A stretch of DNA of 34,078 nucleotides from Gammaproteobacteria bacterium (GTDB taxonomy: Bacteria; Pseudomonadota; Gammaproteobacteria; Coxiellales; Coxiellaceae). Of this stretch, positions 1-3,429 are shown piece by piece. Every line of letters begins with the position of its first letter. Positions within the stretch are counted from its first letter, which is position 1. The notes beneath the pieces are model-generated. The model was not told where the DNA came from and searched no databases. It saw only the letters and a list, made by a program, of their open reading frames with translations. A program made the position numbers and the translations under genes. The stretch lies in contig JAUIAD010000031.1 in assembly GCA_030425685.1 (NCBI GenBank), positions 1 through 34,078 on the forward strand. Reading direction: 5' to 3'.

Positions 1-159
1 TGTGGCGCTTTAGTAAAAGTAATGGCATCACTGAAGGCTTCCATCGCAAGATGAAACTTATACAGCGTCGTGCCTATGGATTTAAAAACTTTGAAAATTA
101 TCGACTGAGAGTTAAAGTATTATGTTCATAGAAGGTGCCCCCGGAATTGGGAAAGACCC
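1..159 (+). mobile_element. ISL3-family insertion sequence, right end (cut by window edge)
   Basis: This is the 3' end of an insertion sequence: the last codons of an ISL3-type transposase followed 28 bp later by an apparent terminal inverted repeat. Read from outside, the end is GGGTCTTTCCCAATTCC, which fits the GG(G/C)TCTTT-type termini of the ISL3 family. The left part of the element lies outside the window, so whether it is complete cannot be seen. The element points toward the tRNA-Thr gene at 392-467, with a series of partial copies of its end between them. Confidence 0.8.
3..131 (+). CDS. ISL3-family transposase, C-terminal fragment
   Basis: An open frame of 42 codons runs from the window start to TAG at 129-131. 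It contains the C-terminal signature GFHRKMKLIQRRAYGF followed by KNFENYRLRVKVLC, which is typical of the DDE transposase of the ISL3 family (Pfam DDE_Tnp_ISL3). The protein would catalyse transposition of the element. Only the C-terminal helical part is visible and the catalytic DDE residues lie upstream of the window, so activity cannot be judged. The frame is intact as far as it goes. Confidence 0.8.
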   Translation, partial: WRFSKSNGITEGFHRKMKLIQRRAYGFKNFENYRLRVKVLCS

Positions 160-384
160 AAAACTTTGAAAATTATCGACTGAGAGTTAAAGTATTATGT
201 TCATAGAAGGTGCCCCCGGAATTGGGAAAGACCCAAAACTTTGAAAATTATCGACTGAGAGTTAAAGTATTATGTTCGTAGAAAGTGCCCCCGGAATTGG
301 GAAAGACCCAAGTATTATGTTCGTAGAAAGTGCCCCCGGAATTGGGAAAGACCGAGAAAGTGCCCCCGGAATTGGGAAAGACCC
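85..384 (+). repeat. Tandem array of nested copies of the IS right end
   Basis: Three 75-bp direct repeats lie head to tail at 85-159, 160-234 and 235-309. A 44-bp partial copy (310-353) and a partial copy of about 30 bp (354-384) follow. Every copy ends in the same IS terminus (GAATTGGGAAAGACC) and later copies are shortened from their 5' side. The first unit covers the last codons of the transposase plus the terminal inverted repeat. Copies 1-2 read TTCATAGAAGG and copies 3-5 share a G/A variant form (TTCGTAGAAAG or its surviving part), so there are two sequence classes. The array ends about 7 bp from the CCA end of tRNA-Thr. Confidence 0.9.
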
Positions 385-391
385 CGAAAAT

Positions 392-467
392 TGGAGCTGG
401 CGATAAGATTCGAACTTACGACCGGCTGATTACAAATCAGCTGCTCTACCAACTGAGCTACGCCAGC
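392..467 (-). tRNA. thrU: tRNA-Thr (anticodon TGT)
   Basis: On the minus strand a full cloverleaf folds. The acceptor stem is GCTGGCG paired with CGCCAGC, the D arm is AGCTCAGTTGGTAGAGC, and the anticodon stem GCTGA/TCAGC encloses loop TTTGTAA, giving anticodon TGT. The T loop is TTCGAAT and CCA is encoded. The discriminator base is T (U73); the E. coli threonine tRNAs as I recall them have A73. It reads ACA and other ACN codons. In E. coli the equivalent gene sits directly upstream of tyrU-glyT-thrT-tufB on the same strand. Here it is inverted and separated from them by about 1.3 kb. Confidence 0.95.
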
Positions 468-1749: not shown

Positions 1750-1800
1750 ACTGTGCTCAATTTTTTTGAGAAGAGAGAGCAAAGATTTAAAAAAAGACGT

Positions 1801-1882
1801 GGAGGGGTACCCGAGCGGTCAAAGGGACCAGACTGTAAATCTGGCGGCTTAGCCTTCGGAGGTTCGAATCCTCCCCCCTCCA
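1801..1882 (+). tRNA. tyrU: tRNA-Tyr (anticodon GTA)
   Basis: This is a class II tRNA with a long variable arm. The acceptor GGAGGGG pairs with CCCCTCC, the anticodon stem CCAGA/TCTGG encloses CTGTAAA with anticodon GTA at 1835-1837, and the T arm is GGAGG-TTCGAAT-CCTCC. The discriminator is A at 1882. The next bases are TAC, so CCA is not encoded and must be added by the CCA-adding enzyme, unlike the other four tRNAs in the window. First gene of the tRNA-tufB transcript. Confidence 0.96.
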
Positions 1883-1892
1883 TACCTACGCT

Positions 1893-1940
1893 AATAGAAG
1901 ACAGGGGATAGGGCATTGACTCTGTCTCCTGCCTTCTATT
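1893..1940 (+). other. Spacer hairpin between tRNA-Tyr and tRNA-Gly
   Basis: AATAGAAG (1893-1900) pairs with CTTCTATT (1933-1940), then after one mismatch CAGG pairs with CCTG, around an internal loop of 22 nt. It fills most of the spacer between the two tRNAs and lacks a T tract, so it is more likely an RNA-processing signal than a terminator. Confidence 0.55.
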
Positions 1941-1949
1941 ATGTGTAAC

Positions 1950-2023
1950 GCGGGTGTAGTTCAACGGTAGAACCTCAGCCTTCCAAGCTGATGGTGTGGG
2001 TTCGATTCCCATCACCCGCTCCA
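1950..2023 (+). tRNA. glyT: tRNA-Gly (anticodon TCC)
   Basis: The acceptor GCGGGTG pairs with CACCCGC. The anticodon stem TCAGC/GCTGA encloses CTTCCAA, giving TCC. The T arm contains TTCGATT, the discriminator is T, and CCA is encoded (2021-2023). It reads GGA and GGG codons. It has the same neighbours as the E. coli glyT gene. Confidence 0.96.
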
Positions 2024-2049
2024 CTTGTTTTGTGGAGCTGTTAGAAAGG

Positions 2050-2124
2050 GCCCACATAGCTCAGGGGTAGAGCACTTCCTTGGTAAGGAAGAGGCCACCG
2101 GTTCAAATCCGGTTGTGGGCTCCA
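2050..2124 (+). tRNA. thrT: tRNA-Thr (anticodon GGT)
   Basis: The acceptor GCCCACA pairs with TGTGGGC. The anticodon stem CTTCC/GGAAG encloses TTGGTAA, giving GGT, and CCA is encoded. It reads ACC and ACU. Like the TGT isoacceptor at 392-467 it has U at the discriminator position, so U73 seems to be the rule for threonine tRNAs in this genome. tufB begins 32 bp downstream. Confidence 0.96.
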
Positions 2125-2155
2125 GTATATAAGATAAAATTTGGAGGAGTATTCC

Positions 2156-3346
2156 ATGTCTAAAGAGAAATTTGTACGCGAAAAGCCACACGTTAATGTC
2201 GGCACCATTGGTCACGTTGATCATGGGAAAACAACATTAACAGCAGCGTTGACAAAGTGCTTGGCGGAAAAATTTGGTGGTGAAGCACGTGCTTTCGATC
2301 AGATTGATAATGCGCCTGAAGAAAGAGAACGTGGAATTACCATTGCAACCTCACACGTAGAATACGAAAGCGATAACCGTCATTACGCGCACGTTGACTG
2401 CCCAGGACACGCTGACTACGTGAAAAACATGATTACCGGTGCTGCGCAAATGGATGGTGCTATCTTAGTAGTATCAGCTGCTGACGGCCCTATGCCACAA
2501 ACACGTGAGCACATCGTGTTAGCAAAACAGGTTGGTGTACCAAGCATCGTTGTATTCTTAAATAAAGCAGACATGGTTGATGATGCTGAATTGCTAGAAT
2601 TGGTTGAAATGGAAGTACGTGAGTTGTTAAGCAGCTACGATTTCCCAGGTGATGACACACCTATCATTGTTGGGTCTGCATTGAAAGCTTTAGAAGGTGA
2701 CAGCAGCGACATCGGTGTTCCAGCGGTTGTTAAATTAGTACAAACAATGGATGAATACTTCGAAGAGCCAAAACGTGATATCGATAAGCCCTTCTTGATG
2801 CCGATTGAAGATGTATTCTCAATTTCTGGTCGCGGTACGGTAGTAACAGGCCGTATTGAGCGCGGTATTGTTAAAGTGGGTGAAGAAATTGAAATCGTTG
2901 GTATTCGTGAAACCACTAAGACAACTTGTACGGGTGTTGAAATGTTCCGTAAGTTGTTAGACGAAGGTCAAGCGGGTGATAACGTTGGTATCTTATTACG
3001 TGGTACGAAGCGTGAAGATGTAGAACGTGGTCAAGTATTAGCGAAGCCAGGTTCAATCACACCGCATACAAAATTTGAAGCAGAAGTTTATATTCTGTCT
3101 AAAGAAGAAGGTGGCCGTCATACACCATTTTTCAAAGGTTACCGTCCACAGTTCTACTTTAGAACGACTGACGTAACTGGCATGGTGACTTTACCAGAAG
3201 GTGTCGAAATGGTGATGCCAGGCGATAACATCAAGATGGACGTAGAATTGATTGCTCCGATTGCGATGGATGATGGTTTACGCTTTGCGATTCGTGAAGG
3301 TGGACGTACTGTTGGCGCAGGTGTGGTAACTAAGATTATTGAATAA
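2156..3346 (+). CDS. tufB: Elongation factor Tu, first copy
   Basis: The product is the 396-residue EF-Tu GTPase that delivers aminoacyl-tRNA to the ribosomal A site. GTPase motifs are GHVDHGKT (residues 19-26), RGITI (59-63), DCPGH (81-85) and NKAD; domains 2 and 3 are complete. ATG at 2156 is preceded by GGAGGA (2143-2148); an upstream in-frame TTG at 2141 overlaps that site and is rejected. The protein is identical to the second copy at 18839-20029. The DNA differs only by synonymous changes near both ends, with the interior 2525-3180 identical. It is cotranscribed with upstream tRNAs, and tRNA-Trp starts 7 bp after its stop. Confidence 0.98.
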
Positions 3347-3353
3347 TAAAAAT

Positions 3354-3429
3354 AGGCCAGTAGCTCAATTGGCAGAGCGACGGTCTCCAAAACCGTAGGT
3401 TGGGGGTTCGATTCCCTCCTGGCCTGCCA
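3354..3429 (+). tRNA. trpT: tRNA-Trp (anticodon CCA)
   Basis: The acceptor AGGCCAG pairs with CTGGCCT. The anticodon stem ACGGT/ACCGT encloses CTCCAAA with anticodon CCA. The T loop is TTCGATT, the discriminator is G, and CCA is encoded. It lies between tufB and secE; the short spacers suggest it is cut from a tufB-secE precursor transcript. Confidence 0.96.

What the first reader, a model, noticed from the sequence alone, without database searches (positions are those of the whole stretch)
85..384. Nested, progressively shortened tandem copies of an IS terminus beside a tRNA gene
Five copies of the ISL3-type right end are stacked: three of 75 bp, then 44 bp, then about 30 bp. All share the same 3' boundary and lose sequence from the 5' side. 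Two sequence classes (copies 1-2 and 3-5) show the array is not a single recent slippage. A plausible inference is repeated one-ended or aborted transposition, or replication slippage anchored at the IS end next to the tRNA 3' end. The repeats also contribute IR-like sequence just downstream of tRNA-Thr, where they might act in 3' processing or termination.
Basis: seen in the sequence. Interest (0 to 1): 0.6.

Follow-up and report, generated by a model that had tools for sequence, protein, structure and literature searches.

The report
Stacked ends of a tRNA-targeting transposon
Next to a tRNA gene lie five stacked copies of one end of a small jumping gene, and comparison with related bacteria suggests that this kind of element usually lands just behind tRNA genes, facing the same way, so that broken ends of earlier arrivals pile up there.

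Summary
The array is real. Window 85-384 holds five right-end copies of an ISL3-type insertion sequence (75, 75, 75, 45 and 30 bp). All end at the same terminal base, 7 bp from the 3' end of tRNA-Thr(TGT). Copy 1 is the resident element's own end.

The larger finding is where such ends lie. Of 81 right ends of this transposase clade that could be judged, 50 lie within 300 bp of an intact tRNA or tmRNA gene, and all 50 face its 3' end. Another 19 lie behind a tRNA 3' fragment. Twenty-eight other ISL3 loci had no tRNA; of 30 IS3-type loci from host genomes, 2 had one, on the other side.

Nineteen of the 81 carry stacked right ends. Five join clearly different elements, and junctions resemble the clade's external targets. 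I read the array as repeated same-direction insertions behind one tRNA, each into the previous element's right end, whose distal remainder was later lost. Slippage cannot explain mixed arrays, but could explain the second identical 75-bp unit. How the remainder is lost is inferred. Ten paper searches found no general account of this targeting, only one isolated Legionella case.

The parts
3..131 (+). C-terminal 42 residues and stop of the resident ISL3-family transposase (rest beyond the contig edge)
   Evidence: PF01610, 49 bits; NF033550, below its full-length cut-off
85..159 (+). Right-end copy 1 (75 bp), the resident element's own right end; overlaps the end of the transposase gene
160..234 (+). 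Right-end copy 2 (75 bp), identical to copy 1
235..309 (+). Right-end copy 3 (75 bp), second sequence class (two base differences)
310..354 (+). Right-end copy 4 (45 bp), second class, changed terminal base
355..384 (+). Right-end copy 5 (30 bp), nearest the tRNA
385..391 (.). 7-bp spacer between the outermost terminus and the tRNA
392..467 (-). tRNA-Thr(TGT), 3' end facing the array

Best explanation
The array is a pile of stumps left by repeated insertions of a tRNA-targeting ISL3-family element. Elements of this transposase clade (about 1.29 kb, 8-bp AT-rich target duplication) insert into the DNA just behind the 3' end of tRNA and tmRNA genes, with the right end (transposase C-terminal side) toward the RNA gene (shown by comparison of loci, not by experiment). 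A later element arriving behind the same tRNA lands in the right end of the earlier one, in the same direction, at an AT/T-rich site, and so leaves a truncated right end between itself and the tRNA (supported by junction structure and mixed arrays). The distal remainder of the older element is then lost, by deletion beside the new element's left end or by recombination between copies (inferred). In the window this happened up to four times: stumps of 30, 45, 75 and 75 bp, then the resident element. The second 75-bp unit may instead be a simple duplication. How the transposase finds tRNA genes is unknown; I think it reads DNA at the tRNA 3' end, because right ends also sit behind tRNA 3' fragments (inferred).
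For: 50 of 81 right ends within 300 bp of an intact tRNA/tmRNA, all 50 facing its 3' end, 19 more behind a 3' fragment; controls 0 of 28 (other ISL3) and 0 of 30 (rve_3, C-side). Clade on one side of a branch, 100/100. Stacked right ends at 19 of 81 loci; 5 of the 19 join clearly different elements. 22 junction 8-mers match a preference matrix from 55 external sites (mean top fraction 0.23; 20 unique 8-mers P = 6.5e-5). The same internal site ([GT]ATAATTT) is cut in four arrays of different hosts (L002, L076, L084, L156). Exact 8-bp duplications in 5 of 19 elements with a readable left end. An older element's remainder lies beyond the left end in L076 and L178.
Against: The window's own three distinct cuts rank only 0.33, 0.05 and 0.43 in the preference test. 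None of the 4 full arrays with a readable left end (L061, L076, L178, L183) keeps a target duplication with either flank, and L061 and L183 have no older remainder within 1.6 kb. In the mixed array L141 the inner element is itself truncated and no older remainder shows in 8 kb (L176). 12 of 81 loci have no tRNA or fragment by the automatic rule; L135, L169 and L175 have none by eye. The 81 are not all independent (several per genome; related species share loci). L178 lies beside assembly gaps.
Confidence: 0.75

Rival explanations
1. Replication slippage or unequal crossing-over duplicated the resident right end step by step; the tRNA plays no part in making the array.
For: Copies 1 and 2 in the window are identical 75-bp units, which a simple duplication would give; the copy 1-2 variant was not seen at the other right ends of this genome.
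Against: 5 of 19 arrays join right ends of clearly different elements; junctions resemble external targets; outer boundaries sit at the element terminus.
Confidence: 0.1
2. One-ended joining: the right end of one copy is joined straight to a site in the right end of a sister copy, without full insertion, giving a stump plus the element in one step.
For: Explains why 4 of 4 readable arrays lack a target duplication and why L061 and L183 have no remainder. The copy 1-2 variant occurs only at this locus among the right ends seen, which fits a local donor.
Against: Older remainders exist beyond the left end in L076 and L178; mixed arrays need a donor of another type. No direct evidence for one-ended events.
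Confidence: 0.12
3. The association is with genomic-island attachment sites, not with tRNA genes as such: the elements ride with islands or follow integrases.
For: 19 of 81 right ends lie behind tRNA 3' fragments, as island junctions do; some lie in integrase-like sequence (L064, L077, L082, by eye); an attachment-like motif is frequent behind the tRNAs concerned.
Against: Many sites lie 6-13 bp behind intact tRNAs with no motif, among them the window's array and L003; the L062 copy sits in the tmRNA terminator with a clean 8-bp duplication.
Confidence: 0.2
4. Assembly artefact: the stacked copies were created or mis-ordered by the assembler at a repeat.
For: The window begins at a contig edge inside the transposase gene, and contigs C42 and C50 also end inside it. 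Several relatives' arrays contain assembly gaps.
Against: The copies differ in length and sequence. Arrays occur in a two-contig genome (L061, L063) and in a record labelled complete (L076).
Confidence: 0.04

Closest known systems
ISL3 family insertion sequences (NCBIfam NF033550, Pfam PF01610)
   Same: Transposase domains, imperfect terminal inverted repeats, 8-bp AT-rich target duplication
   Different: This clade lies behind tRNA/tmRNA 3' ends in one direction; 28 other ISL3 loci examined had no tRNA
IS1202 family 'dif hunters' such as ISAjo2 (PMC10132070: abstract and passages seen)
   Same: A one-transposase element always found in the same orientation next to a precise chromosomal target
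   Different: TnsB-like transposase, 5-bp duplication and dif/pdif target; a word search of that text found no 'tRNA' and no 'tandem'
Tn7-like transposons and CASTs with tRNA attachment sites (PMC11406308: passages seen)
   Same: Insertion at tRNA genes as safe sites
   Different: They use TniQ/TnsD proteins or guide RNAs; here the 1.29-kb elements have room for little beyond the one transposase
Genomic islands integrated by tyrosine recombinases at tRNA 3' ends (recalled; also mentioned in PMC6617341, passage)
   Same: Same genomic address, the tRNA 3' end
   Different: Large elements with an integrase that rebuild the tRNA; here a DDE transposase with 8-bp duplication behind the tRNA
Yeast Ty1/Ty3 and Dictyostelium TRE retrotransposons (recalled)
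   Same: Insertion beside tRNA genes as a safe zone
   Different: Retrotransposons guided by RNA polymerase III factors

Membership tests
ISL3 family | ISL3-type DDE transposase | tested here: met
   Relative's full protein P0002: PF01610 197 bits, NF033550 272 bits (cut-off 180); window fragment P0001: PF01610 49 bits
ISL3 family | Imperfect terminal inverted repeats | tested here: met
   Left-end model positions of about 42-75 match the right-end terminus in reverse, in relatives; the window's left end is not available
ISL3 family | 8-bp target duplication (family value recalled) | tested here: met
   Exact 8 of 8 in 5 of 19 relatives' elements with a readable left end; not testable in the window
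ISL3 family | Size of about 1.3-2.3 kb (recalled) | tested here: inconclusive
   17 of 19 are 1282-1291 bp, at the lower edge
IS1202 family (dif hunters) | TnsB-like transposase, 5-bp duplication, dif target | tested here: not met
   ISL3 domains and 8-bp duplication; target is behind tRNA genes
Tn7-like transposons with tRNA sites | Separate targeting protein (TniQ/TnsD) or guide RNA | tested here: not met
   Elements of about 1.29 kb with a 390-402 aa transposase leave no room for a second targeting gene; a small RNA was not looked for
Tyrosine-integrase genomic island | Integrase inside the element and duplicated tRNA 3' end as boundary | tested here: not met
   The element's gene is an ISL3 transposase and its duplication is 8 bp; neighbouring islands may exist

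The most novel reading that the evidence does not exclude
A clade of one-gene ISL3 elements finds tRNA genes through the same DNA site that genomic-island integrases use. The left end of Legionella-type elements carries a 15-bp motif (AAATCAAGGA-C/G-TTAG, one half of a palindrome, in 10 of 14 left ends). The same motif, in the same direction, lies 2-14 bp behind the tRNA 3' end in 14 of 56 intervals between a tRNA and a right end, 0 of 56 in reverse, and in 1 of 30 control tRNA flanks. The transposase, or an integrase bound there, could steer insertion to island attachment sites, as proposed for XerC and the dif hunters. The stacked right ends would then record successive arrivals at one attachment site. 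Against it: the window's array site lacks the motif, so do most other sites, and elements of G353 and G099 lack it in their left ends.
Probability: 0.25. Interest if true: 0.8.

Novelty: new variant of a known kind. Interest (0 to 1): 0.62.

Why it matters
Insertion sequences are mostly taken to insert nearly at random or at loose AT-rich sites (recalled); the few with a precise target are valued because they show how a lone transposase can choose a site. Here a one-gene element appears to use the safe zone behind tRNA and tmRNA genes, in one direction, in Legionella and several other gammaproteobacteria. The stacked right ends are a readable history of arrivals at each tRNA. If confirmed, this makes it testable how a DDE transposase recognises tRNA genes and how such elements share these sites with genomic islands.

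Tried and rejected
Slippage as the general cause was rejected because of mixed arrays and target-like junctions. Clean recombination collapse after nested insertion was tested by asking whether the outermost target 8-mer reappears beyond the left end; it does not in the 4 full arrays that could be read, so the loss step is left as inference. A terminator role of the array was looked for and not found on the tRNA strand. An assembly artefact is judged unlikely. The attachment-motif idea was tested: it holds for a minority of sites and not for the window, so it is kept only as the novel case; its shuffle control moved blocks of two bases, and its 30 control tRNA flanks partly come from the same tRNA clusters. 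Ten answered paper searches listed no general account of tRNA-targeting ISL3 elements; passages of three papers were read (one abstract), the rest were seen as listings only.

Rows dropped before counts: of 95 loci scanned with the right-end model, 5 gave no hit (L006, L097, L099, L137, L151). The others gave 100 locus-strand entries; 19 were dropped (10 left-end cross-matches, 9 with the outer end missing), leaving 81. Left out beforehand: L066 (same place as L078), L031 (identical to L029), L098 and L100 (no C-terminal match). L006, behind tRNA-Glu by eye, is not in the 81. L070 has further partial right-end matches that I did not analyse. Controls used the best 30 loci of each search; 2 of the ISL3 ones belong to the clade and were left out; their distances were measured from the domain edge, not from an element end. 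One of the two IS3-type loci with a tRNA (L197) lies beside the L162 array itself. In the tree 19 of the 28 control loci gave a usable protein; several sit on long branches, and one (L226) is mostly masked letters. Junction test: 22 of the 31 junctions listed; left out were those with assembly gaps, very short stumps, an eroded outer end, or an exact repeat. 5 of 60 external sites were left out of its matrix because they end in right-end pieces or are eroded.

Full report
WHAT IS THERE. The window is the start of a contig (G000:C4:1-34078; genome 3.84 Mb in 74 contigs). Bases 3-131 encode the last 42 residues and stop of an ISL3-family transposase. Five copies of the element's right end overlap or follow it: 85-159, 160-234, 235-309 (75 bp each), 310-354 (45 bp) and 355-384 (30 bp). 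All end at the element's terminal base. Seven bases further on is the 3' end of tRNA-Thr(TGT), complement 392-467. Copies 1 and 2 are identical; copies 3 and 4 differ from them at the same two bases, and copy 5 at the one of these that it reaches. The right ends checked at C42, C50, C14 and C30 carry the copy 3-5 bases.

THE OTHER COPIES IN THE GENOME. A search of the own genome gave six places. Read by eye, each has its terminus toward a tRNA 3' end or a CCA-ending tRNA 3' fragment: tRNA-Thr (C4), tRNA-Lys (C50), tRNA-Glu (C19, a diverged copy), and fragments at C42, C14 and C30. C42 has a second array, with pieces of 65, 45 and 9 bp before the full end.

RELATIVES. Right ends and transposases were collected from other genomes by sequence alone, without regard to tRNAs. 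In the drawn sample of the class, 8 of 369 genomes had a close match. Named hosts include Coxiellaceae bacterium SSA3, an Arenicellales MAG, L. adelaidensis and other Legionella species. Of 81 right ends that could be judged, 50 lie within 300 bp of an intact tRNA or tmRNA gene; all 50 face its 3' end, none the 5' end. Distances run from 6 to 268 bp (median 44); the genes are tRNA-Arg 10, Pro 8, Met 6, Leu 6, Phe 6, Thr 4, Lys 3, Asn 3, Glu 2 and tmRNA 2. Nineteen more lie behind a tRNA 3' fragment. The fragment finder gave 12 hits, true ones included, in 420,668 strand-bases of 20 long loci outside intact tRNAs. Six opposite-direction fragment hits are all at loci whose intact tRNA is tRNA-Arg. 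Of the 12 loci without either, four show a tRNA or tmRNA 3' fragment by eye (L140, L149, L166, L173) and L065 a possible 12-base piece of the tmRNA 3' end; L094 has tRNA-Phe at 492 bp, L077 and L082 a fragment at 366 bp, L075 one at 730 bp; L135, L169 and L175 show none. The loci are not all independent: several come from one genome, and some related species share a locus.

CONTROLS. Twenty-eight ISL3 loci outside the clade, the best of a class-wide search of 274 genomes, have no tRNA at all. Of 30 rve_3 (IS3-type) loci from 14 host genomes of the clade, none has a tRNA on the C-terminal side and two have one on the other side; one of these (L197) lies beside the L162 array itself. In a maximum-likelihood tree of 11 clade transposases and 19 usable controls the clade is one side of a branch at 100/100; several control rows sit on long branches.

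ANATOMY OF INTACT ELEMENTS. Of 19 elements with a readable left end, 17 measure 1282-1291 bp; the ends are imperfect inverted repeats. An exact 8-bp duplication is present in five: gttttttt, cattaatt, ctttgctt, aattaaaa and cattattc. The first lies in what looks like the T-tract of the terminator behind tmRNA (by eye). Three more agree at 6 of 8 bases; eleven at 5 or fewer.

STACKED RIGHT ENDS. Nineteen of the 81 loci carry two or more right ends in a row, and L140, by eye, another. Three others (L091, L152, L163) end in stumps of 7-9 bases of the terminus. Pieces range from 9 to 663 bp; outer boundaries are the element terminus except where assembly gaps or an eroded piece (L063) intervene. 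In five arrays (L096, L133, L141, L145, L172) neighbouring pieces come from clearly different elements. The same internal site ([GT]ATAATTT) is cut in the C42 array of this genome and in L076, L084 and L156. A preference matrix from 55 external sites places the 22 usable junction 8-mers at a mean top fraction of 0.23 among positions in up to 230 bp of element; for the 20 unique 8-mers the chance of so low a mean is 6.5e-5. The window's three distinct cuts rank at 0.33, 0.05 and 0.43, so the support comes from the set, not from this array alone.

HOW IT WORKS. Supported by comparison: clade-wide placement behind tRNA genes in one direction; repeated arrivals at one tRNA, also by different elements; termini joined to target-like sites inside older right ends. 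Inferred: the newest element is the one farthest from the tRNA, and older ones lost their distal part. In favour of loss after nested insertion: older remainders lie 1.3 kb beyond the left end in L076 (two pieces, 98-99% identical) and directly at the left end in L178 (100% over 88 bp, beside an assembly gap); the single copy L079 has 35 bp of another copy there. Against a simple picture: L061 and L183 have no remainder within 1.6 kb, the mixed array L141 shows none in 8 kb, and the 4 full arrays with a readable left end keep no target duplication. Deletion beside the left end, recombination between copies, or one-ended joining to a sister copy would each fit part of this.

WHAT IS KNOWN. The element belongs to the ISL3 family by domains, repeats and duplication length. 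Its target choice resembles the dif-hunting IS1202 family (PMC10132070, abstract and passages) and tRNA-using Tn7-like transposons (PMC11406308, passages), but transposase, target and duplication differ from the first, and the separate targeting protein or guide of the second is missing. One isolated case is in print: an ISL3 element between a methionine tRNA and a type II secretion gene in L. oakridgensis (PMC6617341, passage), where the authors treat it as one example of tRNAs as integration sites. Ten paper searches found no general description; subscription journals and ISfinder were not available.

VERDICT. As a repeat it is debris; as a pointer it leads to a tRNA-targeting ISL3 clade whose arrivals at each tRNA can be read from stacked right ends. 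I rate it a new variant of a known kind, interest 0.62.

Noticed in passing
left ends of L074, L075, L079, L080, L082, L083, L087, L091, L094, L095; tRNA flanks: A 15-bp left-end motif (AAATCAAGGA-C/G-TTAG, half of a palindrome) recurs in the same direction 2-14 bp behind the tRNA 3' end in 14 of 56 tRNA-to-right-end intervals, 0 of 56 in reverse, and 1 of 30 control tRNA flanks. It looks like an island attachment core.
   Followed up: partly
L002, L004, L005 (own genome) and L069, L071, L072, L081, L083, L087, L091, L096 among others: Right ends often sit behind tRNA 3' fragments, which look like junctions of genomic islands; whether the island or the element came first is open.
   Followed up: partly
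L021, L024 (G033), L029, L033 (G055): Decayed right ends survive 6-13 bp behind tRNA-Pro and tRNA-Thr in small one-contig genomes of the same family, with no intact transposase read there.
   Followed up: partly
window 1800-2124 and 3354-3429: tRNA-Tyr, Gly, Thr(GGT) and Trp flank a gene that I take by eye for elongation factor Tu (2141-3346); no right end was found behind these tRNAs.
   Followed up: no
L156 (G406:C13:1218100-1220200): Two right-end sets lie between two tRNA genes that point toward each other (tRNA-Met and tRNA-Phe), each set facing its own tRNA.
   Followed up: no
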